From: Orientallactaga sibirica
Lineage: Eukaryota > Chordata > Mammalia > Rodentia > Dipodidae
Assembly (NCBI GenBank): GCA_036365145.1
Contig: JAEOAD010002670.1
Span: forward strand, 1 to 64,000
Direction of reading: 5' to 3'
Length of the DNA: 64,000 bases
In this document: piece by piece, positions 8,371 through 49,464 of the stretch
Numbering within the stretch: position 1 is the stretch's first letter
How the letters are laid out: the number at the start of each line of letters is the position of its first letter
Position numbers and translations under genes: made by a program
Notes under the pieces: generated by a model
What the model was told of the DNA's origin: nothing
The model's input: the letters and a program-made list of their open reading frames with translations, nothing else
Database searches by the model: none

Positions 8371-8899
8371 TGTATTAGTCAGGGTTCTCTAGAGGAACAG
8401 AATGGACAGAATGAATTGTATTAAAAGGGGATTTATTGGATTAGCTTACACAGTGCAGCAATAGCAGGTTGCAGGTCCGAGAGTCAAGAAACCCGGTAGC
8501 TGCTCAGTGCACGAGGCTGGAGGCCTCAGCAGTCCCAATCGGCACTGAAGGCCTGGAGGCTTCCTGAGAGACTCTGCTCTTCAGTCCACCCTGGTCTTCA
8601 GTCCACACTGAGAGCAGCAACACCAAGCAGCAGGTACCAAGCAGAAAACACCAAGCAGCTAGTAGCACCGGCAGCCAGGTGGGAGAGAGAGAGCCTTTCT
8701 TCCCAGAGCTCCTTTTATCAACCATCCCCCCCTCCAAGAGGGGCCGCCCACTCTGGGCCGCCCACTCTGGGGAAGGCTTACCCTGGGGAAGGATTCTTCC
8801 TTTAGTTAATCCTTCCTAGAGGCAGCCACAGAAACACACTTATGAGGAATGTCTGTGGATTCCTAAACAAATCAAGTTGACACAAACTTAACCATCACA
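8371..8899 (-). repeat. ERV-L 3' LTR (complete, MLT2/MT2-like)
   Basis: A 529-bp LTR on the minus strand, starting TGTGATGG at 8899 and ending AATACA at 8371. The polyadenylation signal AATAAA reads on the minus strand at 8437-8432. It is highly similar to 10022-10413 and clearly related to the LTR at 41000-41540. The tract next to its start (8900-8915, minus strand ACAAGGGGTGGACT) fits the purine-rich site that primes plus-strand DNA synthesis in retroviruses. Confidence 0.9.
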
Positions 8900-10021: not shown

Positions 10022-10413
10022 TGGAGGCCTCAGCAGTCCTAATCCGGCACTGAAGGCCTGGAGGCTTCCTGGAGAGATGCTGCTCTTCAATCCACCCTGG
10101 TCTTCAGTCCACACTGGAGAGCAGCAACACCAAGCAGCAGGTACCAAGCAGAAAACACCAAGCAGCTAGTAGCACCGGCAGCCAGGTGGGAGAGAGAGAG
10201 AGCCTTTCTTCCCAGAGCTCCTTTTTATCAACCAGCCCCCTCCTCCAAGAGGGGCCGCCCACTCTGGGCCGCCCACTCTTGAGGATGGCTTACCCCTGGG
10301 GGAAGGATTCTTCCTTTAGTTAATCCTTCCTAGAGGCAGCCTCAGAAACACACTTATGAGGAATGTCTGTGGATTCCTAAACAAATCAAGTTGACACAAA
10401 CTTAACCATCACA
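10022..10413 (-). repeat. ERV-L 5' LTR, truncated
   Basis: The first ~390 bp of the LTR on the minus strand, from TGTGATGG at 10413 to a break at about 10022-10024, where integrase sequence begins. Compared with 8371-8899 it lacks the last ~140 bp, including the AATAAA. Three bases (TGG, 10022-10024) fit both sides of the junction. Confidence 0.88.
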
Positions 10414-23672: not shown

Positions 23673-24820
23673 ATACTCACTTTCTCTTTTACATTATATA
23701 TATCTTTTTCCTCCTCACCTTCCTAGGTGCAGACTTATAACTCCCAGTGCCAGCAAGGGGTTAACTTCCACAATGAGCTGTTGATCTGAAACACCTACAA
23801 GGTTTCCCAAAAAAGACAGACTTCTGTCAGAGTACTTGGTGACCCACCAAAGGTTAATGGTAAGCCCCTACTGTTGAAGACAGCATACGTGTGTGAGACC
23901 AAACACAGAGAGACCTGGCCAGAATCTGGAAGAAGGTCAGTACCCAGACAGTTAGCTAGTCTAGTACCAGAGGGTGCTACACGAGCAACTGGGGAAAAAT
24001 GTCTGACATTGGTCCAAACAACTTGCAGTCTAAGATACCCAGCAGGAAACAATCTGAAGTAATGCTCATACAAGTGCAGTAGTGGCAAACAGCCATGGTG
24101 GGTAACCAACTGCTCTTGATTTGCCTAATAAATCCATTCAGTGGAATGGAACTCATTGCTGGAACTGGGAAATAAGTCAAAGCCATGTACAAAAAATGAG
24201 CACAGTCTCCAAGATCTAGAGGCCAACAAATGTGGGCTAGAAGAGAGCCAATGCATACAAAGTTCCCTCCAAAACATATATGGTTATCCCTTCTATCTAG
24301 TACTAACATCTCTCTCCGTTGGAGAATTTGCTTATCTCTTTTACAGGTGGACAACGAACCTGAAGGGAGGATCAGCTAACCACACCTCAGCAGCTGAAAC
24401 CATAGAACAACGCAAGGGAAGGGCAAGAATACAGCGCTCAAGGTGATCACAACACCAGAAAAAGGCTAAAGGAGATAAACACAGAGAACATCCAACTCCA
24501 ATCATAAGCCAGATATCCAGAGACACAGAGGCTCCCAAATCCTCATCAAGGAAGCAGAGCTAAAATGACCCAAATGTGGCTCAGGGAAACTCGCGGAAGA
24601 GGGGGCGGAAAGATTGTTAGAGTTACAAGTTGGGGCATTATGCACAGAGACTGGGGCCTATCCACCAGAACTCTTGAGCAAACTCACAATGCATGATACA
24701 CATTCCCCACTGATGAGGGCCCCTTTGAAAGTGGGAGGAAGGGGAGGAGGAAAATGGAACCAATTCTATGAATGTAAAATCAGAATTATATAAATAAAAT
24801 ATATATATTGATTAAAAAAA

Positions 24821-27800
24821 GAAATGGATGATCCCTCGGGGTAATGCAGGTGTTTACCCTTACCTATGGAATGGATCATCCCTCCGGGCAATGCAGGGGT
24901 TTACCCTTACCTATGGAATGGATCATCCCTCGGGGCAATGCAGGTGTCATCTTTATCTATGGAATGGATGATCCCTCTGTTCAATGCAGGTGTTTACAGT
25001 TACCAAAGGAATGGATGATCTCTCTGTGCAATGCAGGTGTTTGCCTTTACCTAAGGATGGATGATCCCTCTGTTCTATGCAGGTGTTTACGGGTATCTAA
25101 GGAATGGATGATCCCTTTGTTCAATGCAGTTGTTTACGGTAACCAAAGGAATGGATGATCCCTATGTGCAATGCAGGTGTTTACAATTACCTAAAGAATG
25201 AAAGATCCCTCTCTTCAACTCAGGTGTTTACCATTACAAAATGAATGGATGTTCTCTGTGTGCAATGTAGGTGTTTCCCTTTACATAAGGAATGGAGGAT
25301 CACTCTGGGCCAGGCAGGTGTTGACCTTTACCTAAGGAATGGATGATCCCTCTGTGCATTGCAGGTGTTTACTATTACCTAAGGAATGGTAGATACCTAT
25401 GTTCAATGCTGGTGTTTAACTTTACCAAAGGAATGGATGATCCTTCTGTGCAATGCAGGTGTTGACCTTTACATAAGGAATGGCTGATCCCTGTGTGCAA
25501 TGCAGGTGTTTACCATTACCTAAGGAATGGATCATAGGTCTGTGCAATGCAGGTGTTTACCTTTACCTAAATAACGGATGAACCCTCTGTGCAATGCAGG
25601 TCTTGATCTTTACCCAAGGAATAGATGATCCCTCTGTTCAATGCAGGTGTTTCACGTTATCTAAGAAATGGATGATCCCTCTGTGCAATGCAGGTGTTGA
25701 TCTTTACCTACGGAATAGATGAGCCCTCTTTTAAATGCAGGTGTGTACTGATATCTAAGGAATGGATGACCCATCTGTTCAATGGAGGTGTTTACAGTTA
25801 CCTAAGGAATAGATGATCCCCCTGTGCAGTGCAGGTTTTACCTTTACCTAAGGAATGGATGATCAATGCTCAATGCAGGTGTTTACCTTTACCTAAGCAT
25901 GGATGATCCCTCTGTTCGATGAAATTGTTTACAGTTACCTAAGGAATGGATAATCCCTCTGTGCAATGCAGATGTTTACCTTTACCTAAGGAATGGATGA
26001 TCCCTCTGTGCATTGCAGGTGTTTACTATTACCTATGGAATGGAAGATCCCTCTTTTCAAAGCAGGTGTTTACCTTTGCCTAAGGAATGGATGATTCCTG
26101 TGTTCAACACAGGTGTTTACGTTCACATGAAGAAGGATGATTCCTCTGTTCAACGCAGGTTTCTACTTTTAGTTAAGGAATAGATGATCCCTCTATGCAA
26201 TGCAGGTGTTTACTATTACCTAAGGAATGGAAGATCCCTCTGTTCAATGCAGGTGTTTACCGTTATCTAAGGAATGTATAATCCCTCTGTTCAATGTAGT
26301 TGTTTATAGTTATCTAAAGAATGGATGATCCCTCTCTGCAATACAGGTGTTTACCTTTACCTAAGGAATTGATGATACCTCTGTGCTATCCATGTGTTTA
26401 GCTTTACCTAAGGGATGGGATGATCCCCCTGTGCAATGGAGTTGTGGATTGTTACCTAAGGAATAGGTGACCCCACTGTTCAATCCAGGTGTTTACCGTA
26501 TCTAAGGAATGGATGATCCCTCTGTGCAATGCAGGTGTTAACCTTTACCTAAGGAATGATATGATCCCTCTGTGCAATGCAGGTGTTGATCTTTACCTAA
26601 GGAATAGATGATCGATCTGTTCAATGCAGGTGCTTACCATTATCTAAGGAATGGATGATCCCTCTTCAATGTAGCTGTTTACAGTTACCTAAGGAATGGA
26701 TGATCCCTCTGTGCAATGCAGGTTTTTTGCTTGACGTAAGGAATGGATGAACCCTCGGTTCATGGCGGGTGTTTATATTTGTCTTAGGAATGGATGATCC
26801 CTCTGTGCATTGGAGTTGTTTACTATTACCAAAGAAATGAAAGATACTTCTGTTCAATTCTGGTGTTTACCTTTACAAAAGGAATGCATGTTCTCTGTGT
26901 GCAATGCAGATGTTGAACTTTACTTAAGGAATCGATGATACCTCTGAGCAATGCAGGTGTTTACCATTACCTAAGCAATGGATGATCCCTCTGTGCAATG
27001 CAGGTGTTTACCTTTACCTAAGGAAAGGACGATACCTCTGTTCAACACCGGTGTTCACCTTTACCTATAGAAGGGTGATCCATCGGTTGAACACAGGGTT
27101 CTACCTTTACTTAAAGAATGGATGATCCCTCTGTGCAATGAATATGTTGACCTTTACCTAAGGAATATATAACCCCTCTGTTCAATGCAGTTGTTTACCT
27201 TTACCTAGAGAATGGATGACATTTCTGTTCAATGCAGGTGTTTACCATTATCTAAGGAATGTATGATCCCTCTGTTCAATGAAGTTGTTTACAGTTACAT
27301 AAGTAATGGATGATCCTTCAGTGCAATGCAGGTGTTTACCCTTAGCTAAGGAATGGATGAAACTCTGTCTATTGTAGATATTTACATTTACCTTAGGAAT
27401 GGATGATCCCTCTGTGCATTGCTGGTGTTTACTATTTCCTAAGTAATGGAAGATCCCTCTCTTCAATGCAGGTGGTTACCTTTATCTAAGGTATGGCTGA
27501 TCCGTCTGTTCAATGCAGGTGTTTACATTACCAAAGTAATGGATGTTCCCTGTGTCAAATGCAGGTGTTTAACTTTACATAAGCAATGGGTGATCCCTCT
27601 GGGACAGTCAGTTGTTGACTTTTACCTAAGGAATGGATTATCGCTGTGTGCATTGCAGGTGTTTACCTTTACCCATGGATTGGATGATCCCTGTGTGCAA
27701 TGCTGGTGTTTACTTTGACCTTAGGAATGGGATGATCCCTCTGGGAAATGCAGGTGTTAAACTTTACCAAATGAATAGATGATCCCTTTGTTTAACGCAG

Positions 27801-30800
27801 GTGTTTACCGTTATCTGAGGAATGGATTATCCCTCCGTTCAATGCTGGTGTTTTCATTTACCTAAGGAATGGATGATGCGTCAGTGCAATGAAGGTGATT
27901 ACATTTACCTAAGGAATGGATGATCCCTCTGTGGTATGCCTGTGTTTATCTTTACCTAAGGAATGGGATATTCCCTCTGTACAATGCAGGTGTGGATCTT
28001 TAGCTAAGGAATAAATTATCCTTCTGTTCAATACAGTTGTTTACTGTTTCATAAGGAATGGATGATCCCTCTTTGCAATTCAGGTGTTTACCCTTACCTA
28101 GGAAATGGATAATCCCTCTGTACGCTCCAGGTGTTTACCTTTACCTAAGTAATGGATGATTCATCTGTGCATTGCAGGTGTTTACTATTACCTAAGGAAT
28201 GGATGATCCCTCTGTTCAATGAAGGTGTTTAACTTTACCTAAGGAATCGATGAACGCTCTGTTCTATCCAGGTATTTACATTTACGAAAGGAATGGATGT
28301 TCTCTGTGTGCAATGCAGGAGTTAACATTTACGTAAGGAATGGATGATCCCTCTGAGCAGGCAGGTGTTCACTTTACCTAAGAAATGGATGATCCCTCTG
28401 TGCAATGCAGGTGTTGAACTTTACCAAAGGAATGGATAATCCCTCTGTGCATTGCACGTGTTTACCATTACCAATGGAATGTATTATCCTTCTGTGCATT
28501 GCAGGTGTTTATATTTGCCTTAGGAATGGATGATCCCTCTGTGCATTGCAGGTGTTTACTATTAACTAAGGAATGGATGATCCCTCTTTTCAATGCAGGT
28601 GTTTACCTTTACCGAAGGAATGGATCTTCCCTGTGTGCAATGCAGGTGTTACCTTCACAAAAGGAATGGATGATCCTTCTTGGCCAGGCAGGTGTTGACC
28701 TTTACCTAAGGAACGGATGAACTCTCTGTGCAATGCAGTTGTTTACCATTACCTAAGGAATGGATGATGCCTCTGTACATTTAAGGTGTTGACCTTTACG
28801 TAAGGAATGGATGATCCCTCTGTGCAATGCACGTGTTCACCACGTACCTATGGAATGGTTGATACGTCTGTGCAACTCAGGTGTTTACCCTTCCCTATGG
28901 AATGGATGATCCCTCTGTTCATTGCAGGAGTTTACATTTATGTAAGTAATGGGATGATCCCTCTGCGCATTTCAGGTGTTTATTATTATCTAAGGAATGG
29001 AAGATGCCTATGTTCCATGCTGGTGTTTACCTTTACCTAAGGAAATGATGATTCCTCTGTGCAATGGAGGTGTTCATCTTTACCTAATGATTGGAATATC
29101 CCTCTGAGCAATGCAGGTGTTGTCCTTTACTGAAGGAATGGATGACCGTCTGTGCAATGCAGATGTTGAACTATACTTAAGGAATCGATGATCCCTCTGT
29201 GAAATGCAGGTGTTGATCTTTACCAAAGGAATAGATGGTCCCTCTCTTCAATGCAGGTTTTTACCATTATCTAAGGAATGTATGATCCCTCTGTTCAATG
29301 CAGGTGATTCCCATTACCTGAGGAATGGATAATCCCTCTGTGCATCGCAGGTGTTTACTATTACCTATGGGATGAAAGATCCCTCTGTTCAATGCAGGTG
29401 TTTACCTTTACAAAAGGAATGGATGTTTTCTGTGTGCAACGGAGGTGTTTACCTTGACATAAGGAATGGATGATCCCTCTGTTCCTGGCAGGTGTTGACA
29501 TTTACCTAAGGAATGGATGATCCCTCTGTGCAATGCATGTATTGACAATTACCTAAGGAATGGATGATCCCTCTGTTTAATGCAGGTGTTTACCGTTATC
29601 TACGGAATGTATGATCCCTCTGTTTAATGCAGGTGTTTACCGTTATCTACGGAATGGATGATCCCTCTGTGCAATCCACCTGTTTACCATTAACTGAGGA
29701 ATGGATGATTCTTCTGTGCAATGCAGGTATTTACCTTTACCTAAGGAATTATATGATCCTTCTGTGCAATGCAGGTGTTGATCTTTGCCTAAGGAATAGA
29801 TGATGTCTCTGTTCAATGCTGGTGCTTACCCTTATCTAAGGAATGGATGATCCCTATGTTCAATGCAGGTGTTGACCATTACCTAAGGAATGGATGATCC
29901 GTCTGTTCAATGCAGTTGTTTAACATTATCTAAGGAATGGATGATCCCTCTGTTCAATGCAGGTGTTTACAGTTACCTAAGAACGGATGATCCCTCTGTG
30001 AAATGCAGGTTTTTCCGCTTTCCCTATGAATGGATGATGCCTCTGTGCATTGCAGGTGTTTATATTTGTCTTAGGAAAGGATGATCCCTCTGTGCCATGC
30101 ATGTGTTTACTATTACATCAGGAATGAAAGATCCCTCTGTTAAATGCAGGTGTTTACCTTTACAAAAGTAATGATGTTTTCTGTGTGTAATGTAGGTGTT
30201 TACCTTTACAAAAGGAATGGAAGTTCTCTGTATGCAATGTAGGTGTTTACCTTTACATAAGACATGGATGATCCTTCTGTGCAATTCAGGTGTTGACCAT
30301 TACCTAAGGAATGGATGATCCCTCTGCTCAATGCAGGTGTTTACCATTATCTAAAGAATGGTTGATCCCTCTGTGCAATCCAGGTATTTACCATTACCTA
30401 AGGAATGGATGATCCCTCTGTGCAATGCAGGTGTTTACCTTTAGCTAAGGAATGGATGATCCCTCTGTTCAATGCAGGTGTTTCCCATTATCTAAGGAAT
30501 GGATGATCACTTTGATCAGTGCACGTGTTTACTATTACGTAAGTAGTGCATGATTCCTCTGTGCAATGCAGGTGTTTAATGTTACCTAAGGAATGGATGA
30601 TCCCTCTGTTCAATGCAGGTGTCTAGCTTTACCCAAAGTATGATGATCCCTCTCTTCAAATTTGGTTTCTACCTTTACTTAAGGAATTGATGATACCCCA
30701 CTACAATGCAGGTGTATACCCTTACATAAGGAAGAGATGATCCCTCTGTGCATTGTATGTGCTTACATTTACGTTCGGAATTCATGATCCCTCTGTGCAA

Positions 30801-31115
30801 AACAGGTGTTTACTATTACCTAAGGAATGGATTTTCAATGTGTGCAATGCAGGGGTTTACCTTAACATAATGAATGGATGATCCCTCTTGGCCAGTCAGG
30901 TGTTGACCTTTACCTAAGGAATGGATGATCCATCTGTTCAATGCAGGTGTTGATCTTTACTAAAGGAATGGATGATACCTCTGTACAATGAATGTTTTGT
31001 CCTATACCTAAGGAATGGAAGATCCCTCTGTGCAATATATATGTTGACCTTTACCTAAGGAATGGATGATCGCTCTGTTCAATGCAGGTGTTGATCATTA
31101 CTTAAGAAATGGATG
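24821..31115 (+). repeat. 47-bp tandem satellite array, segment 3
   Basis: The array resumes directly after the L1 A-run and runs about 134 units to the chimeric retrocopy. The first units carry a local subtype with CTCGGGGCAATGC and CTCCGGGCAATGC (24830-24950), not seen to the left of the L1. ORFs on both strands (for example 26666-26857 minus and 28499-28720 plus) are satellite translations. No gene seen. Confidence 0.97.
31104..31115. repeat. 12-bp target-site duplication of U6atac-SINE chimera, left copy
   Basis: AAGAAATGGATG ends exactly where the U6atac 5' end begins, and is repeated at 31437-31448 right after the SINE A-rich tail. The A-rich start of the duplication is typical of the L1 endonuclease target. 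Because the target is a satellite, neighbouring units resemble it, but the exact AAGAAATGGATG with this tail junction favours a true duplication. Confidence 0.85.
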
Positions 31116-31197
31116 GTGTTGTATGAAAGGAGAGAAGGTTAGCACTCCCCTTGACAAGGATGGAAGAGGCCCTTGGGCCTTACAACACGCATATGGT
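31116..31197 (+). pseudogene. RNU6ATAC: U6atac snRNA 5' segment (about nt 1-82)
   Basis: The sequence begins GTGTTGTATGAAAGGAGAGA, the exact 5' end I recall for mammalian U6atac, and continues through the AAGGTTAGCACTCCCC segment (the U4atac/5' splice-site pairing region) to the stem around GCATATGGT. By memory of the human RNA there are about three mismatches in 82 nt. U6atac is the catalytic-centre snRNA of the minor (U12-type) spliceosome. The 3' part, with its terminal stem and oligo-U, is missing, and no snRNA-type promoter is visible in the satellite upstream, so it should be non-functional. It starts at nucleotide 1 of the RNA, as expected when reverse transcription runs to the template end. 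Confidence 0.85.
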
Positions 31198-31199
31198 AC

Positions 31200-31436
31200 G
31201 GGGCCTGGAGAGATGGCTTAGTGGTTAAGAACTTGCCTGTGAAGCCTAAGGACACTGGTTCAAGGATCGATTCCCCACGACCTATGTAAGCCAGCTGTAC
31301 AAGGTGGCACATGCAGCTGGAGTTCATTTGCAGTGGCTGGAGGCCCTGGCACTCCCATTCTCTCTCTAACTGTCTGCTTCTTTCTCTCTCTGTCTGTCAA
31401 TTTCAAATAAATAAATAAATAAACAATTTTAAAAAA
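31200..31436 (+). mobile_element. B2-headed tRNA-derived SINE (3' partner of chimera)
   Basis: Starts with a B2-like head (GGGGCCTGGAGAGATGGC). It has a pol III A box, TGGCTTAGTGG, at 31214-31224 and a B box-like GGTTCAAGGATC at 31257-31268. The body, containing TTTGCAGTGGCTGGAGGCCC, is followed by a CT-rich stretch and an (AAAT)n/A-rich tail that includes AATAAA. The same family occurs at 48369-48605 and, reversed, at 44119-44276. I associate this form with dipodoid rodents; that family assignment is from memory. Confidence 0.85.
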
Positions 31437-31899
31437 AGAAATGGATGATCCCTCTGTGCAATTCAGGTGTTGTCCTATAACTAAGGAATGGATGATCCCA
31501 CTGTATAATGCAGGTGTTGACCTTTACCTAATGATTGGATGATCCCTCTGTGCAAAGAATGTGTTGACCTTGACCTAAGGAATATATGACACCTTTGTTC
31601 AATGCAGGTGTTTACCTTTACCTAAGGAATTGATGATCCCTCTGTTCAATGCAGGCGTTTTCCTTTACCTAAGGAATTGATGATCCCTCTGTTCAATGCA
31701 GGTGTTTACCTTTACCTAAGGAATTGATGATCTCTCTGTTCAATGCAGGTGTTTTCCTTTACAAAAGGAATGGTTGTTCTCTGTGTGCAATGCAGGTGTT
31801 TACCTTAACATAAGGAATGGCTGATCCCTCGGGGCCAGGCAGGTGTTGACCTTTACCTAAGGAATGGATGATCCCTCTGTGCAATGCAGGTATTAACCA

Positions 31900-34800
31900 T
31901 TACCTAAGGAATGGATGAAACCTCTGTTCAATGCAGGTGTTTACTGTTATCTACTGAATGGATGATCCCTCTGTGCAATCCAGGTATTTGCCATTACCTA
32001 AGGAATGGATGATCCCTCTGTGCAAAACAGGTGTTTACCTTTACCTAAGGAATGATATGATCCCTCTGTGCAATGCAGGTGTTGATCTTTATCTAAGGAA
32101 TAGATGATCCCTCTGTTCAATGCAGGTGCTTACCCTTATCTAAGGAAAGGATTATTCCTCTGTTCAATGCAGCTTTTTACACTTACCTAGGGAATGGATA
32201 ATCTCTCTGTGCGATGCACGTTTTTATCTTGACCTAAGGAATCGATGATCCCTCTGTGCATTGCAGGTGTTTATATTTGTCTTAGGAATGGATGATCACT
32301 CTGTGCATTGCTGTGTTTTCTATTACGTAAGAAATGAAAGATCCCTCTGTTCAATGCTGGTGTTTACCTTTACAAAAGGAATGGATGTTCTCTGTGTGAA
32401 ATGCCGGTTTTTACCTTTACATAAGGAATGGATGATGCCTCTGTACAATGCAGGTGTTGACCTTTACCTAGTGATTTGATGATCCCTCTATGCAATGAAT
32501 ATGTTGACCTTTACCTAAGGAATATGATGCAGGTGTTTACCTTTACCTAAGGAATTGATTATCCCTCTGTTCAATGTAGGTGTTTTCCTTTACAAAAGGA
32601 ATGGATGTTCTCTGTGTGCAATGCAGGTGTTTACCTTTACATAAGGAATGGATGATCCCACTGGGCCAGGCAGGTGATGACCTTTACCTAAGGAATGGAT
32701 GATCCCTCTGTGCAATGCAGGTATTGACCATTTCCTAAGGAATGGATGATCCCTCTGTTCAATGCAGGTGTTTACCATTATATACTGAATGAATGATCCC
32801 TCTGTGCAATCCAGGTGTTTACTATTGCCTAAGGTATCGATGATCCCTCTGTGCAATGCAGGTGTTTATATTTGTCTTAGGAATGGATGATCACTCTGTG
32901 AATTGCAGGTGTTTACTATTACCTAAGGAATGAAAGATCCCTCTGTTCAATGCTGGTGTTTACATTTACAAAAGGAATGAATGTTCTCTGTGTGCAATGC
33001 CTTAGGAATAGATGATCCGTCTGTTCAATTCAGGTGCTTACCCTTATCTAAGGAATGGATGATCCCTCTGTTCAATGCAGCTGTTTACAGTTACCTAAGG
33101 AATGGATGATCCCTCTGTGCAATGCAGGTTTTTAGCTTGACCTAAAGAATGGATGATCCGTCTGTGCATTGCAGGTGTTTATATTTGTCTTAGCAATGGA
33201 TGATCACTCTGGGTATTGCAGGTGTTTACTATTACGTAAGGAGTTAAAGATCCTTCTGTTCAATGCTGGTGTTTACGTTTACAAAAGGAATTGATGTTCT
33301 CTGTCTGCAATGCTGGTTTTTACCTTTACATGTGGAATGGATGATCCCTCTGTGCAATGCAGGTCTTTAGCTTTCCCTAAGGAATGGATGATGCCTCTGT
33401 GCAGTGCAGGTATTTACTATTACCTCCGGAATGAAAGATCCCTCTGTTCAATGCAGGTGTTTACCTTTACAAAAGGAATGGATGTTTTCTGTGTGCAATG
33501 TTGGTGTTTACCTTTACATAAGACATGGATGATCCTTCTGTGCAATGCAGGTGTTTACCATTACCCAAGGAATGAATGATCCCTCTGTTCAATTGCAGGT
33601 GTTTATATTTATCTAAAGAATGGATGATACCCTCTGTGCTATCCAGGTGTTTACCATTACCTAAGGAATGGATGATCCTCTGTTAAATGCAGGTGTTTAC
33701 ATTTATCAAAGGAACAGATGATCCCTCTCTTCAATGCAGGTTTTTCCGTTATCTATGGAATGGATGATCTCTCTGATCACTGCAGGTTTTACCATTACAT
33801 AAGGAATGGTTGATCCCTCTGTGCAATGCAGGTGTTTAATGTTACCTAAGGAATGGATGATCCTCTGTTCAAAGCAGGTGTCTACCTTTACCTAAAGAAG
33901 TATGATCCTCTCTTCAAACCAGGTTTTTACATTTACTTAATGAATGGATAATCCCCTGGTGCAATGCAGGTGTTTACACTTACCTAAGGAATAGACATCC
34001 CCTCTGTGCAATGTAGGTGTTTACATTTACCTTTGGAACTGATTATACCTCTGTGTATTGCAGATGTTTACTATTACCTACGGAATGGATATTCCTGTGT
34101 GCAATGCAGGTGTTTACCTTTACATAAGGTATGGATGATCCCTATTTGCAAGTCAGGTGTTGACCTTTACCTAAGGAATGGATGATCCTCTCTATGCAAT
34201 GAATATATTGACCTTTACACTCAGGAATATATGACACCTCTGTTCAGTGCAGGTGTTTACCTTTGCCTAAGGAATGGATGATCCTCTGTGCAATGTAGTG
34301 TTTACCCATACCTAAGGAATGGATGATCCTCTGTGCAATGTAGTGTTTACCCATACCTAAGGAATGGATGATCCTCTTTGCATTGCAGGTGTTTCCTATT
34401 ACTTATGGAATGGAAGATCCCTCTGTTCAAAGCAGGTGTTTACCTTTACCAAAGTAATGGATATTCCCTGTTTTCAATGCAGGTGTTTAACCTCACATAA
34501 GGAATGGATGATCCTCTGGCCAGGCAGATGTTGACCTTTATCTCAGAATGGATGATCGCTCTGTGCATTGCAGGTGTTTACATTTACTTTAGGAATGGAT
34601 GATCCCTCCGTGAGTTGCAGGTGTTTACTATTACCTAAGAAATGGAAGATACCTCTGTTCAATGCAGGTGTTTTCCTTTACCAAAGGAACTGGTGTTTAG
34701 GGTGTGCAATGCAGGTGTGGGCATTTACACAAGGAAGGGATGATCCTCTTGGACAGGCACGTGTTAACATTTACCTAAGGAATGAATGAGGACATCTGTT

Positions 34801-37800
34801 CAATGCTGGTGTTGAACTTACCTAAGGATTGGATGATCAAGGTGTGCAATACAGGTGTTCACCTTTACCTAAGAAATAGATGATCCCTCTGTGCAAGGCA
34901 GGTGTTTACATTTACCTAAGGAATGGATGATCCCTCAGTTCAATGCTGGTTTTTAGCTTTAAAAAAGGAATGGATAATGCCTCTGCGCACTGTAGGCCTT
35001 TATATTTGTCTTAGGAATGGATAATCCCTCTGCGCATTGGAGGTGTTTACTATTACCTAAGGAATGAAAGATCCTCTGTTCAATGAAGGTATTTATCTTT
35101 ACAAAAGGAATGGATTTTCTCTTTGTTCAATGCAGGTGTTGACCATTACCTAAGGAATGGATGATCCCTATGTTCAATGCAGGTCTTTACCATTATCTAT
35201 GGAATGGATAATCCCTCTGTGCAATGTAGGTGTTGACCATTACCTAAGGAAATGGATGATCCCTCTGTTCAATGCAGGTGTTTACAGTTACAAAGGGAAT
35301 GGATAATCCCCTCTGTGCAATGCAGGTGTTGACCTTTACCTAAGGAATGGATGATCCCTCTGTTCAATGCATGCGTAAGGAATGTAAGGTGTTGATCATT
35401 ACCTAAGGAATGGATGATCCTCTGATCAATGCAGGTGTTTACCATTACCTAAGGAATGGATGATCCCCTGTTCAATGCAGGTGTTTATCTTTAACTATGG
35501 AATGGATGATCCCTCTGTGCAATGCAGGTGTTTGCCTTTACCTAAGGAATGGATGATCCCTCTGTTCAATGCAGGTGTTTACAGTTACCTAAGGAATGGA
35601 TGATCCTCTGTTCAATGCAGGTGTTGATCTTTATCTAAGGAATAGATGATCCCTCTGTTCAATGCAGGTGTTTACCTTTATCTAAGGAATGGATTATTCC
35701 TCTGTTCAATGCAGGTGTTTTACCTTTACCTAGGGAATGGATAATCCTCTGTGCAATGCAGGTGTTTATCTTTACCTAAGGAATAAATGATCCCATCTGT
35801 GCAATGCAGGTGTTTATATTTGTCTTAGGAATGGATGATCACTCTGTGCAATTGCTGTGTTTACCTTTACGTAAGAAATGAAAGATCCCTCTGTTCAATG
35901 CTGGTGTTTATCTTTACAAAAGGAATGGATGTTCTCTCTGTTCAATGCCGGTTTTTACCTTTACATAAGGAATGGATGATGCCTCTGTACAATGCAGGTG
36001 TTGACCTTACCTAGTGATTTGATGATCCTCTATGCAATGAATATATGTTGACCTTTACCTAAGGAATATGCAATGCAGGTGTTTACCTTTACCTAAGGAA
36101 TTGATTATCCTCTGTTCAATTCAGGTTTTTCCTTTACAAAAGGAATGGATGTTCTCTGTGTGCAATGCAGGTGTTGACCTTACATAAGGAATGGATGATC
36201 CCACTGGGCCAGGCAGGTGTTGACTGTTACCTAAGGAATGGATGATCCTCTGTGCAATGCAGGTATTGACCATTTCCTAAGGAATGGATGATCCTCTGTT
36301 CAATGCAGGTGTTTACCATTATATACTGAATGAATGATCCCTCTGTGCAATCCAGGTGTTTACTATTATCTAAGGAATGGATGATCCCTCTGTGCAATGC
36401 AGGTGTTTACATTTGTCTTAGGAATGGATGATCACTCTTTGCATTGCAGGTGTTTACTATTACCTAAGGAAATGAAAGATCCCTCTGTTCAATGCTGGTG
36501 TTTACATTTACAAAAGGGAATGAATGTCCATGCAATGCAGGTGCAATTACCTAAGGAATAGATGATCCGTCTGTTCAATCAGGTGCTTACCCTTATCTAA
36601 GGAATGGATGATCCCTCTGTTCAATGCAGGTGTTTACAGTTACCTAAGGAATGGATGATCCCTCTGTGCAATCCAGGTTTAGCTTGATATAAAGAATGGA
36701 TGATCCGTCTGTGCATTGCAGGTGTTTATATTACAGTTAGCAAGGAATGGATGATCACTCTGGGTATTGCAGGTGTTTATCTTTACCAAAGGTGGAAGAT
36801 CCTTCTGTGCAATGCTGGTGTTTACGTTTACAAAAGGAATTGATGTTCTCTGTTTAATGCTGGTGTTTTTTACATGTGGAATGGATGATCCTCTGTGCAA
36901 TGCAGGTGTTTAGCTTACCTATGGAATGGATGATGCCTCTGTTCAGTGCAGGTATTTACTATTATCTCCGGAATGAAAGATCCCTCTGTTCAATGCAGGT
37001 GTTTACCTTTACAAAAAGGAATGGATGTTACGACTGTGCAATGTTGGTGTTTACCTTTACATAAGAACAGATGATCCTTCTGTGCAATGCAGTTGTTTAC
37101 TTATACCAAGGAATGAATGATCCTCTGTTCAATACAGGTTTTACAGTTATCTAAAGAATGGATGATCCCTCTGTGCAATCCAGGTGTTTATGTTTACCTA
37201 AGGAATGGATGATCCCCTCTGTGCAATGCAGGTGTTTTACATTTATCTAAGGAACAGATGATCCCTCTCTTCAATGCAGGTTTTTCCCGTTATCTATGGA
37301 ATGGATGATCTCTCTGATCACTGCAGGTTTTTACCATTACCTAAGGAATGGTTGATACCTCTGTGCAATGCAGGTGTTTAATGTTACCTAAGGAATGGAT
37401 GATCCCTCTGTTCAAAGCAGGTGTCTACCTTTACCTAAAGAAGTATGATCCCTCTCTTCAAACCAGGTTTCTACATTTACTTAATGAATGGATAATCCCC
37501 TGGTGCAATGCAGGTGTATACACTTACCTAAGGAATAGACAATCCCTCTGTGCATGGTAGGTGTTTACATTTACCTTTGGAACTGATTATACCTCTGTGT
37601 ATTGCAGATGTTTACTATTACCTACGGAATGGATATTCCCTGTGTGCAATGCAGGTGTTTACCTTTACATAAGGTATGGATGATCCCTATTTGCCAGTCA
37701 GGTGTTGACCTTTACCTAAGGAATGGATGATCCCTCTATGCAATGAATATATTGACCTTTACCTCAGGAATATATGACACCTCTGTTCAGTGCAGGTGTT

Positions 37801-39060
37801 TACCTTTGCCTAAGGAATGGATGATCCCTCTGTGCAATGTAGTGTTTACCCATACCTAAGGAATGGATGATCCCTCTGTGCAATGTAGTGTTTACCCATA
37901 CCTAAGGAATGGATGATCCCTCTTTGCATTGCAGGTGTTTCCTATTACTTATGGAATGGAAGATCCCTCTGTTCAAAGCAGGTGTTTACCTTTACCAAAG
38001 TAATGGATATTCCCTGTTTTCAATGCAGGTGTTTAACCTCACATAAGGAATGGATGATCCCTCTTGGCCAGGCAGATGTTGACTTTTATCTCAGAATGGA
38101 TGATCGCTCTGTGCATTGCAGGTGTTTACATTTACTTTAGGAATCGATGATCCCTCCGTGAGTTGCAGGTGTTTACTATTACCTAAGCAATGGAAGATAC
38201 CTCTGTTCAATGCAGGTGTTTTCCTTTACCAAAGGAACTGGTGTTTAGGGTGTGCAATGCAGGTGTTTACATTTACATAAGGAAGGGATGATCACTCTTG
38301 GACAGGCACGTGTTAACATTTACCTAAGGAATGAATGACACATCTGTTCAATGCTGGTGTTGAACTTACCTAAGGATTGGATGATCACTCTGTGCAATAC
38401 AGGTGTTCACCTTTACCTAAGAAATAGATGATCCCTCTGTGCAAGGCAGGTGTTTACATTTACCTAAGGAATGGATGATCCCTCAGTTCAATGCTGGTTT
38501 TTAGCTTTACCTAAGGAATGGATAATGCCTCTGCGCACTGTAGCCTTTATATTTGTCTTAGGAATGGATAATCTCTCTGCGCATTGGAGGTGTTTACTAT
38601 TACCTAAGGAATGAAAGATCCCTCTGTTCAATGCAGGTATTTATCTTTACAAAACGAATGGATTTTCTCTGTGTGCAATGCAGGTGTTGACCATTACCTA
38701 AGGAATGGATGATCCCTATGTTCAATGCAGGTCTTTACCATTATCTATGGAATGGATAATCCCTCTGTGCAATGCAGGTGTTGACCATTCCCTAAGGAAT
38801 GGATGATCCCTCTGTTCAATGCAGGTGTTTACAGTTATCTAGGGAATGGATAATCCCTCTGTGCAACGCAGGTGTTGACCTTTACCTAAGGAATGGATGA
38901 TCCCTCTGTTCAATGCAGGTGTTGATCATTACGTAAGGAATGTAAGATCACTCTGTGCAATGCAGGTGTTTCCCATTATCTAAGGAATGGATGATCTCTC
39001 TGATCACTGCAGGTGTTTACCATTACCTAAGGAATGATCCCCCTGTGCAATGCAGGTGTT
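31900..39060 (+). repeat. 3.55-kb tandem duplication of a satellite block
   Basis: The same order of rare unit variants appears twice, about 3547 bp apart. The GATTTGATGATCC variant is near 32472 and 36019; the GGAACTGATTATACCTCTG variant near 34035 and 37577; and the TTTAGGGTGTGCAATGCAGG variant near 34695 and 38243. Two adjacent identical units with GTAGTGTTTACCCATACC occur in both copies (near 34290-34360 and 37830-37910). The middle of the pair (33670-37240) is degraded compared with the outer parts. Confidence 0.85.
33670..37240. other. Indel-rich stretch, possible unpolished assembly patch
   Basis: Here the usual GATGATCCCTCTG appears over and over as GATGATCCTCTG with one C missing (33676, 33860, 34271, 34366, 35420, 36020, 36240 and more). 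There are also stray homopolymer gains such as AGGAAATGG, GATCCCCTCTG and AAAAAGG. The matching units in the partner copy, at 31900-33660 or 37240-39060, have the normal length. Its length is nearly one duplication period, so removing it would leave one clean, in-phase copy. Confidence 0.75.
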
Positions 39061-40994
39061 CATCTTTAACTATGGAATAGATGATCCCTCTTTTCAATGC
39101 AGCTGTTCACTGACATCTAAGCAATGGATAATCTGTCTGTTCAATGCAGGTATTTACAGTTACCTAAGGAATGAAAGATCCCTCTGTGCAATGCAGGTGT
39201 TTACCTTTACCTAAGGAATGGATGATCCCTCTGTTCAATGCAGGTGTTTACCTTTACCTGAAGAATGTATTATCCCTCTGTGCAATGCAGGTGTTTACCT
39301 TTACCTAAGGAATAAATGAGCCATCTTTTCAATGCAGGTGTTTTCTTACATTTAAGGAATGGATGACACGTCTGTTCAATGGAGGTGTTTACCTTTACCT
39401 AAGAAATGGATGATCCCTCTGTGCAATGCAGGTGTTCATCTTTACCTAAGGAATAGATGATCTCTCTATTCAATGCAGGTGTTTACCTTTACCTAAGGAA
39501 TGGATGATCCCTCTGTTCAATGCATGTGTTGACCTTTACTTAAGGATTGGGATGATCCCTCTGTGCAATGCAGGTGTTCATCTTTAACTAAGGAATAGAT
39601 GATCCCTCTGTTCAATTCAGTTTTTTGCCATTATCTAAGGAATGGATGATCCGTCCCTTCAAAGCAGGTGTTGATCCTTACCTAAGGAACAGATGATCCC
39701 TCTCTTCAACGCAGGTGTTTACTGTTATGTAAGGAATAGATGATCCCTCTGTTCAATGCTGGTGTTTACCATTACATAAGGAATGGATGATCCCTATGTG
39801 CAATGCAGGTGTTGATCTTTAACTAAGGAATAGAGGATCCCTCTGTGCAATTCAGGTGTTTACCATTATCTAAAGAATGGATGATCTCTCTGTTCAATAG
39901 AGAGGTTTACAGATACCTAAGGAATGGATGATCCGACTTTGCAATGCAGGTGTTTACCTTTACCTAAGGATTAGATGATCCCTCTGGGAAATGCAGGTGT
40001 TTACCTTTACCTAAGGAAGGGGATGATCCCTCCATGCAATGCAGGTGTTGATTATTACCTAAGGAATAGTGATCCCTCTGATCAATGTAGGCGTTTAGCG
40101 AAATCTATGGAATGGATGATCCCTCTGTGAAATGCAGGTGTTGATCTTTACCTAAGGAATAGATGAGCCCTCTTTTCAATCCAGGTGTTTGCTGATATAT
40201 AAGGAATGGATGACCCCTCTGTTCAATGCAGGTGTTTACAGTTACCTAAGGAATGGATGGTCCATCTGTACAAAGCAGGTGTTTATCTTTACCTAGGGAA
40301 TGGATGATCCCTCTATGCAATGCAGGTGTTTACTGTTATAAGGAATGGATAATCCCACTGTTTAATGCAGTGTTCACCATTACCTAAAGAATGGGAGGAT
40401 CCCTCTGTGCAATGCAGGTGTTGATCTTTACCTATGGAATAGATGAGCCCTCTGTTCAGTGCTGGTGTTTACTGTTATCTTAAGAATAGATGATCCCTCT
40501 TTTCAAGGCAGAGGTTTACAGATACCTAAGGAATGCATGATACGACTTTGCAATGCAGGTGTTTACCTTTACCTAAGGAATAGATGAGCCATCTTTTCAA
40601 TGCAGTTGTTTACTTATACCTAAGGAATGGACGATCCCTCTGTTCAATGCAGGTTTTTACAGTTACCTAAGGAATGGATGATCCCTCTGTGCAATGCAGT
40701 TGTTGATGTTTACCTAAGGAACAGATGAGCCCTCTGTTCAATGCAGGTGTTTACCATTACCTAAAGAATGGATGATCCCTCTGTTCAATGCAGAGGTTTA
40801 CAGTTACCTAAGGAATGGATGATCCGACTTTGCAATGCAGGTGTTTACTTTAACCTAAGGAATATATGAGCCCTCTTTTCAATGCAGGTGTTTACTGATA
40901 CCTAAGGAATGGATGATCCCTGTGTGCAGTTCAGGTGTTTACCTTTACAGAAGGAATGGATGGTCCCTCTGTGCAATGCAGGTGTTGATCTTTA

Positions 40995-40999
40995 CCTAA
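40995..40999. repeat. 5-bp target-site duplication of plus-strand ERV-L, left copy
   Basis: CCTAA precedes the LTR start TGTGATGG at 41000 and is repeated at 49465-49469 after AATACA. Removing the provirus and one copy restores a normal TTTACCTAAGGAAT satellite junction. Confidence 0.9.
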
Positions 41000-41540
41000 T
41001 GTGATGGTTAAGTTTGTGTCAACTTGACTTGTTTAGGTTGCGTGTAGGGGATCCACGGGGCGTGTAGGAAGGATTAACAAAAAGAATAATCCTTCCCCCT
41101 GGGATAACGAATAATCCCTCCCCCAGAGATAAGCCTTCCCCCAGATTGGGCCACCCCACTTGGAGGAGGGGGCTGGTTGATAAAAAGAAGCTCTTGGAAG
41201 AAAGGTTCTCTCTCTCCCACCTGGCTGCCGGTGCTTCGCTCCTTGCCACTGGGTGCTTGGTGTTACCTGCTGTACTTGCTGTTGGTGTTGCTGCTCTCCA
41301 GTGTGGACTGAAGACCAGGGTGGACTGAAGAACAGAGTCTCTCCAGGAAGCCTCCAGGTCTTCAGTGCCGGATTGGGACTGCTGAGGCCTCCAGCCTCGT
41401 GGCCTGAGCAGCTACCGGGTTGCTTGACTCTCGTACCTACAACCTGCTATTGCTGGACTGTGTAAGCTAATCCAATAAATTCCCTTTTAATACAATTCAT
41501 TCTATCTATTCTGTTCCTCTAGAGAACCTTGACTAATACA
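41000..41540 (+). repeat. ERV-L 5' LTR (complete, MLT2/MT2-like)
   Basis: A 541-bp LTR with TGTGATGG...AATACA termini. A TATA-like GATAAAAAG lies at 41179-41187 and the polyadenylation signal AATAAA at 41474-41479. The start (TGTGATGGTTAAGTTTGTGT) and end (AGAACCTTGACTAATACA) match the MLT2/MT2 LTR class I know from mammals. The 61-70-codon ORFs inside it are chance. Confidence 0.9.
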
Positions 41541-49121: not shown

Positions 49122-49464
49122 AGGCTCTCTGTCTCCCACCTGGCTGCCGGTGCTGCTTGCTCCTTGTCACTGGGTGCTTGGTGTTTTCCTCTTGGTCCTT
49201 GCTGCTTGGTGTTGCTGCTCTCCAGTGTGGACTGAAGACCAGGGTGGACTGAAGAACAGCGTCTCTCCAGGAAGCCTCCAGGTCGTCAGTGTCAGATTGG
49301 GACTGCTGAGGCCTCCAGCCTCATGGCCTGAGCAGCTACCGGGATGCTTGACTCTCGGACCTACAACCTGCTATTGCTGGACTGTGTAAGCTAATCCAAT
49401 AAATTCCCTTTTAATACAATTCATTCTATCCATTCTGTTCCTCTAGAGAACCCTGACTAATACA
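49122..49464 (+). repeat. ERV-L 3' LTR, 5'-truncated
   Basis: The last ~343 bp of the LTR, starting at about AGGCTCTCTGTCTCCCACC, which aligns with 41203 onward of the 5' LTR. It keeps AATAAA (49398-49403) and the AATACA end but lacks the first ~200 bp with the TATA-like box. The deletion also removed the polypurine tract. Confidence 0.88.

What the first reader, a model, noticed from the sequence alone, without database searches (positions are those of the whole stretch)
31104..31448. U6atac-SINE chimeric retrocopy
Seen: 82 bp starting at nucleotide 1 of U6atac are fused to a B2-headed SINE with an A-rich tail. A single 12-bp duplication (AAGAAATGGATG) flanks the composite. Known: L1 reverse transcriptase makes such chimeras by switching template from L1 or SINE RNA to U6 and other small RNAs. 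Inference: this is a template switch from a SINE RNA onto the minor-spliceosome U6atac RNA, a partner I do not recall as commonly reported. If the family has more than one copy, it could be a new composite SINE.
Basis: partly seen in the sequence, partly recalled or inferred. Interest (0 to 1): 0.82.

Follow-up and report, generated by a model that had tools for sequence, protein, structure and literature searches.

The report
Fused U6atac–SINE retrocopy, single copy
A stray copy of part of a splicing RNA (U6atac) was pasted into a rodent's repetitive DNA together with a common jumping element in one event; this kind of accident is already known, though the break point inside the splicing RNA is unusual.

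Summary
31116-31197 is U6atac nt 1-82 (Rfam 89.5 bits; 81/82 identical to full-length copies in this genome). Two unassigned bases (AC) follow, then a complete Dip-type SINE (31200-31435). One 12-bp duplication, AAGAAATGGATG, flanks the whole. The site is a 47-bp satellite, so the duplication might have been a repeat coincidence. That is unlikely: only 7 of 644 non-consensus units share their 12-mer with the next unit, and removing the insert restores the 47-bp phase.

Best reading: one L1-type insertion. Reverse transcription began on a Dip RNA, ran to its 5' end, added about 2 nt, and jumped into U6atac at the base of its 3' stem-loop.

A new composite SINE is not supported: the junction was found once in the held 2.82-Gb assembly. 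U6atac is a reported partner too: Doucet 2015 describes U6atac/L1 and U6atac/Alu chimeras, and this genome holds U6atac/B1, U6atac/Dip and U6/Dip fusions.

The unusual part is the internal junction at nt 82. The 8 other loci I count as direct U6atac-SINE fusions end at nt 123-125, and Doucet et al. state internal initiation was never seen for U6/L1 chimeras. The complete SINE 5' end also fits template jumping better than RNA ligation.

The parts
31104..31115 (+). 5' target-site duplication AAGAAATGGATG (site ACTT/AAGAAA, similar to the L1 endonuclease site TTTT/AA)
31116..31197 (+). U6atac snRNA nt 1-82 (3'-truncated; could be read as nt 1-84 with one T lost)
   Evidence: Rfam RF00619; 81/82 identity to copies in this genome
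31198..31199 (+). AC, assigned to neither part; probably non-templated addition by the reverse transcriptase
   Evidence: the reading is inference
31200..31435 (+). Full-length Dip SINE (Dip_a2-like): overlapping B boxes at 31257-31274, AATAAA repeats, TTTT terminator at 31427-31430, short A tail from 31431
   Evidence: Dip_a2 B-box motif quoted in PMC8466645 (passages)
31436..31447 (+). 3' target-site duplication AAGAAATGGATG (the leading AA may belong to the A tail)
24819..40999 (+). 47-bp satellite array that received the insertion

Best explanation
One L1-mediated retrotransposition event. L1 endonuclease nicked a satellite unit at TT/AAGAAA and primed reverse transcription on the A tail of a Dip SINE RNA. 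The enzyme copied the SINE to its first nucleotide, probably added about two non-templated bases, and jumped into a U6atac RNA at nt 82-84, at the base of its 3' stem-loop. It copied U6atac to its 5' end, and the product was sealed with a 12-bp target-site duplication. Shown: the anatomy, one enclosing duplication, a complete SINE 5' end, an internal U6atac junction, a single copy found in the held assembly. Inferred: L1 as the enzyme, the jump, and the origin of AC. The copy is probably inert (inference).
For: U6atac match with 81/82 identity. SINE start set by sibling copies. Duplication uses a minority 12-mer and keeps the 47-bp phase. Junction found once. The same genome has a clean U6atac/B1 chimera with a 15/15-bp duplication (L018) and U6atac/Dip fusions (L028/L032, L030), and U6/Dip fusions L091 (10-bp duplication) and L092. 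A 3'-truncated U6atac copy, L037, ends at nt 82-85 with a duplication of about 14 bp, 1 mismatch, suggesting the same entry point. Human ORF2p adds non-templated bases and jumps templates in vitro (PMC10830420, passages).
Against: Doucet et al. write that internal initiation was never observed for U6/L1 chimeras and that U6/Alu formation was not reproduced experimentally (PMC4476161, passages). Nt 82 lies inside a predicted stem, not a loop. No clear microhomology explains the jump. L037 is one supporting case. In one search the automatic search did not pick the 12-bp duplication first.
Confidence: 0.7

Rival explanations
1. RNA ligation first: a cleaved U6atac fragment was joined to Dip RNA (for example by RtcB) and the chimeric RNA was then retrotransposed, as reported for U6/L1 (Moldovan 2019, recalled; seen here only as a citation in PMC13247085).
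For: A reported route for U6/L1 chimeras (passages). Law and Burns suggest that truncated U3, tRNA and 28S pieces in L1 chimeras come from cleaved RNAs (sections 10 and 11).
Against: RtcB needs a 5'-OH (recalled), while an intact pol III SINE transcript starts with a triphosphate (recalled); here the SINE is complete to nt 1. Ligation does not explain the extra AC. The snRNA is truncated, whereas U6 in U6/L1 chimeras is typically full length.
Confidence: 0.2
2. Two sequential insertions: a 3'-truncated U6atac retrocopy, then a SINE landing exactly at its end.
For: A 3'-truncated U6atac copy without a partner exists here (L037), and some U6 copies lie next to a separately inserted Dip (L089, L090).
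Against: I see no duplication belonging to the SINE alone; the one found encloses both parts.
Confidence: 0.04
3. The composite belongs to a mobile U6atac-headed SINE family, or was copied from a source locus.
For: The SINE keeps recognisable promoter boxes, tail and terminator.
Against: The junction pattern with up to 3 mismatches finds the window and one ordinary Dip copy, L056. A gapped U6atac-to-Dip pattern finds 2 unrelated sites, but this is a weak negative: it also missed the window's own copy, because the held genome withholds some letters there.
Confidence: 0.04
4. The apparent duplication is a satellite-repeat coincidence and the insertion was endonuclease-independent with a small deletion.
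For: The flanks are a tandem array, and the automatic search preferred other array units.
Against: It needs two neighbouring units sharing a minority 12-mer (7 of 644 pairs) and a deletion of exactly 35 bp.
Confidence: 0.02

Closest known systems
Group IV snRNA/retrotransposon chimeras (U6/L1, U6atac/L1, U6atac/Alu; Doucet et al. 2015, PMC4476161; passages, sections 8 and 9)
   Same: snRNA starting at nt 1, same orientation, fused to a retrotransposon, one enclosing duplication, L1-like site
   Different: Junction inside the snRNA at nt 82; the partner is a complete Dip SINE
LINE-1 chimeras of Law and Burns 2026 (PMC13174262; outline with abstract, sections 10 and 11, passages)
   Same: Small RNA joined upstream of a retroelement in one insertion
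   Different: Their partner is L1; the term U6atac has no occurrence in the main text; supplements not read
Mouse B2-U6-L1 and fungal WEIRD-SINE-LINE tripartite chimeras (PMC2104539; passages)
   Same: Fusion of a small RNA and a SINE with a flanking duplication, read as template jumping
   Different: Tripartite, with a different order of parts
3'-truncated snRNA pseudogenes, Group III (PMC4476161, section 8)
   Same: Truncated snRNA copy with a duplication
   Different: Those have no partner; truncation is attributed to pairing with the target DNA

Membership tests
snRNA/retrotransposon chimera (Group IV) | snRNA sequence recognisable by covariance model | tested here: met
   RF00619 89.5 bits, gathering score 33
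snRNA/retrotransposon chimera (Group IV) | direct fusion to a LINE or SINE in the same orientation | tested here: met
   2-nt gap, both on the + strand
snRNA/retrotransposon chimera (Group IV) | one target-site duplication round the composite | tested here: met
   12 bp, with a control for satellite repeats; not the top choice of the automatic search
snRNA/retrotransposon chimera (Group IV) | L1 endonuclease-like site | tested here: inconclusive
   ACTT/AAGAAA against TTTT/AA, by eye, one site only
snRNA/retrotransposon chimera (Group IV) | parts arrived together (orthologous empty site) | not testable with these tools
   states that this genome has no relatives here
U6-type chimera as usually reported | snRNA copied from its 3' end (full length) | tested here: not met
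   U6atac stops at nt 82 of 125
Dip SINE (Dip_a2) | overlapping B boxes GGTTCGAGGCTCGATTCC | tested here: met
   16 of 18 bases at 31257-31274, by eye against PMC8466645
Dip SINE (Dip_a2) | no 34-bp central insertion (Dip_b) | tested here: inconclusive
   judged only from the roughly 200-bp body; the 34-bp sequence was not compared
Dip SINE (Dip_a2) | T+ tail: AATAAA, terminator, A tail | tested here: met
   31404-31435, by eye
new composite SINE family | more than one copy with the same junction | tested here: not met
   one copy found; lower bound, since some letters are withheld

The most novel reading that the evidence does not exclude
L1 enzyme running off the intact 5' end of a SINE RNA can enter U6atac internally, at a recurrent site at the base of its 3' stem-loop (nt 82-85, as in L037). 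SINE/snRNA chimeras would then record end-to-end template jumping, a route distinct from the RNA ligation proposed for U6/L1 chimeras.
Probability: 0.3. Interest if true: 0.45.

Novelty: new member of a known kind. Interest (0 to 1): 0.27.

Why it matters
By itself it is one pseudogene, probably inert. It matters as a case that helps separate two proposed routes to chimeric insertions: RNA ligation, which should favour intact snRNA 3' ends joined to broken partner RNAs, and template jumping, which should favour junctions at an intact partner 5' end. This genome holds U6atac fused to Dip and B1, and U6 fused to Dip, so such junctions could be counted in it.

Tried and rejected
Rejected or held unlikely: composite SINE family (as a weak negative); satellite-repeat coincidence; two sequential insertions; chance U6atac match. 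L056 looked like a second junction but is an ordinary Dip copy flanked by AAGAATATGGTAT. The two hits contain no U6atac (judged from the matched letters). A first script for array units found only 30 units and was replaced. A slip model for the AC (copying ACGG of U6atac 78-81, then re-annealing) was considered and left as speculation. A U6-to-B1 count was planned, but searches did not complete, so no count is given. Not tested: species identity; the jerboa family is inferred from the Dip SINE. When preparing the report I re-read the loci: it showed that L052 carries the flanks of L018 and is its damaged duplicate, and that some loci had been left out of my fusion count (named in the full report).

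Full report
The window lies in a 119-kb contig of a 2.82-Gb genome. Most of it is a 47-bp satellite, and 31116-31435 is a foreign insert in that array.

U6atac part. cmscan of the whole window at gathering thresholds finds one family match, RF00619, at 31116 (89.5 bits, E 2.5e-20, gathering score 33). The model is stretched to 31236, but the match is real only for nt 1-82. The 82 nt are 81/82 identical to a U6atac sequence that three full-length copies of this genome share exactly (L009, L010, L013). L010 has TATAAATA about 30 bp upstream and is the likely functional gene (by eye; not tested). The only difference is C79T, in a CpG.

SINE part. A genome search with the whole finding lists 45 matches (40 of 6657 candidates scored); apart from the window itself the matches start at query base 94 or later, that is, in the SINE. 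Of 7 siblings fetched, 5 begin GGGGCCTGG and 2 begin GGGCC. Duplications of 10-15 bp were found at 6 of the 7 and only 7 bp at L006. SINE nt 1 is therefore 31200 or 31201. The top sibling is L002 (93%). Against six siblings (L004 left out because it has the same element as L003) 6 of 245 compared columns, tail and a few flank columns included, are private to the window copy. The overlapping B boxes at 31257-31274 match 16 of 18 bases of the Dip_a2 motif in PMC8466645 (passages). That paper calls Dip specific to Dipodidae, so the host is probably a jerboa or relative (inference).

Single event. AAGAAATGGATG is present just before U6atac and just after the SINE. Because the site is a tandem repeat I tested coincidence. 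The 12-mer occurs 12 times in the window, the two flanking copies included, against 298 consensus copies. One search found 1052 units; of 851 unit pairs exactly 47 bp apart, 644 begin with a non-consensus unit, and in 7 of these the next unit carries the same 12-mer. The joined flanks give one unit in exact 47-bp register with both neighbours. Against this, the automatic search, which scores length, mismatches, offset and a preceding A run, put 20-mers of other array units (2 mismatches) above the exact 12-mer. The site ACTT/AAGAAA resembles an L1 endonuclease site.

Copy number. The junction pattern with up to 3 mismatches gives 2 places: the window, and L056, an ordinary Dip copy (reversed control 0). 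A gapped pattern from U6atac to a Dip head gives 2 places, neither with U6atac (control 0). That second search also missed the window's own copy, because the held genome withholds some letters in this contig, so it is weak evidence and all counts are lower bounds.

Context in the same genome. A search with RF00619 scored 46 places, all above the cut-off. A DNA search with the 82 nt listed 40 places (40 of 43 candidates scored), all 40 among those 46. I looked at all 46 Rfam loci. I count 8 as fused directly to a SINE. B1: L018, L031, L012, L041, L053. Dip: L028, its duplicate L032, and L030. In these 8 the U6atac part ends at nt 123-125. I left out L020, L024, L036 and L050, where 11-46 nt lie between U6atac (ending at nt 125, 125, 123, 117) and the SINE match; L039 and L045 (ending at nt 110 and 119), where only a tail or TC run resembles Dip; and L052, which has the flanks of L018 and is a damaged duplicate of it 3.6 kb away. 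So the rule 'ends at nt 123-125' holds for the direct fusions as I chose them, not for each copy lying near a SINE.

Quality of those fusions. L018 has a perfect 15-bp duplication at TT/AAAA. L028/L032 match at 20 of 21 bp, but AT-rich. For L031, L012 and L030 and for L041 and L053 the script found no convincing duplication, so those five may not all be true chimeras. The B1 match begins at B1 nt 1 in L018, 2 in L031, 4 in L053, 8 in L041 and 10 in L012; Dip begins at about nt 82 in L028/L032 and 91 in L030 (BLAST).

Other U6atac copies. L009 is followed by an L1 ORF2 end (translation recognised from memory), with no convincing duplication. L013, L011 and L027 have duplications of 16 (1 mismatch), 14 and 16 (1 mismatch) bp; L015, L016 and L022 have none found. 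The sequences after L013, L027 and L040 are related, as are those after L015 and L022, which fits L1 3' ends but was not checked against a library. L037 is a partner-less copy ending at nt 82-85 with about 14 bp duplicated (1 mismatch).

Major U6. A pattern of the U6 3' end within 20 bases of a Dip head gives 4 places (control 0). In L091 U6 is fused to Dip nt 1, followed by B1 and a 10-bp duplication: a possible U6-Dip-B1 triple. L092 is fused near Dip nt 7 with no duplication found. L089 and L090 have A-rich spacers and look like separate insertions.

Mechanism. In U6/L1 chimeras U6 is typically full length and the L1 is often 5'-truncated (PMC13174262 section 10), which suits RNA ligation or switching. 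Here it is the reverse: the SINE is complete to nt 1 and the snRNA is entered at nt 82, the third base of a predicted 3' stem. RtcB needs a 5' hydroxyl (recalled), which an intact pol III transcript lacks, and two extra bases sit at the junction. Human ORF2p adds non-templated bases and jumps templates in vitro (PMC10830420, passages). Template jumping from the SINE 5' end is therefore the best reading. Against it: Doucet et al. say internal initiation was never observed for U6/L1 chimeras, and that U6/Alu formation was not reproduced experimentally (PMC4476161, passages).

Novelty. Of my eight answered full-text searches, PMC4476161 is the paper I found that treats U6atac chimeras; it reports U6atac/L1 chimeras and one U6atac/Alu locus with a 14-bp duplication. 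In the listings and passages I saw there is no U6atac/Dip chimera and no internal U6atac junction. These searches cover open-licence papers only, one search listed 20 of 65 papers, and supplements were not read. Buzdin 2003 and Kojima 2015 are not held. I rate it a new member of a known kind with an unusual junction.

Noticed in passing
L091 (G000:C1279:38651157-38651192): U6 snRNA fused to nt 1 of a Dip SINE that lacks its tail and is followed by B1 and poly(A), with one 10-bp duplication (AAGAAATTAG): a possible U6-Dip-B1 tripartite chimera.
   Followed up: partly
L018 (G000:C1777:4063514, minus strand): U6atac nt 1-123 fused to B1 nt 1 with no gap and a perfect 15-bp duplication: a clean U6atac/B1 chimera. 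L052, 3.6 kb away, has the same flanks and looks like a damaged duplicate.
   Followed up: yes
L028 and L032 (G000:C1613): U6atac fused to a 5'-truncated Dip SINE, present twice 2.7 kb apart with the same flanks, so probably duplicated after insertion.
   Followed up: partly
L037 (G000:C57): Partner-less U6atac copy truncated at nt 82-85, the same place as the junction in the window.
   Followed up: partly
L053 (G000:C659): A U6atac/B1 fusion that appears split by a later insert with a 6-bp duplication.
   Followed up: no
window 41282-41540 and 49206-49464: Direct repeats 7.9 kb apart (97%) inside the satellite, shaped like the ends of an LTR element; contents not examined.
   Followed up: no
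window 8566-8899 and 10072-10413: Four matching stretches (93-100%) about 1.5 kb apart, sharing a short motif (on the other strand) with the repeats at 41-49 kb; possibly a shorter element of the same group.
   Followed up: no
window 1-64000: A 47-bp satellite of over 1000 units (1052 counted) fills most of the window.
   Followed up: partly
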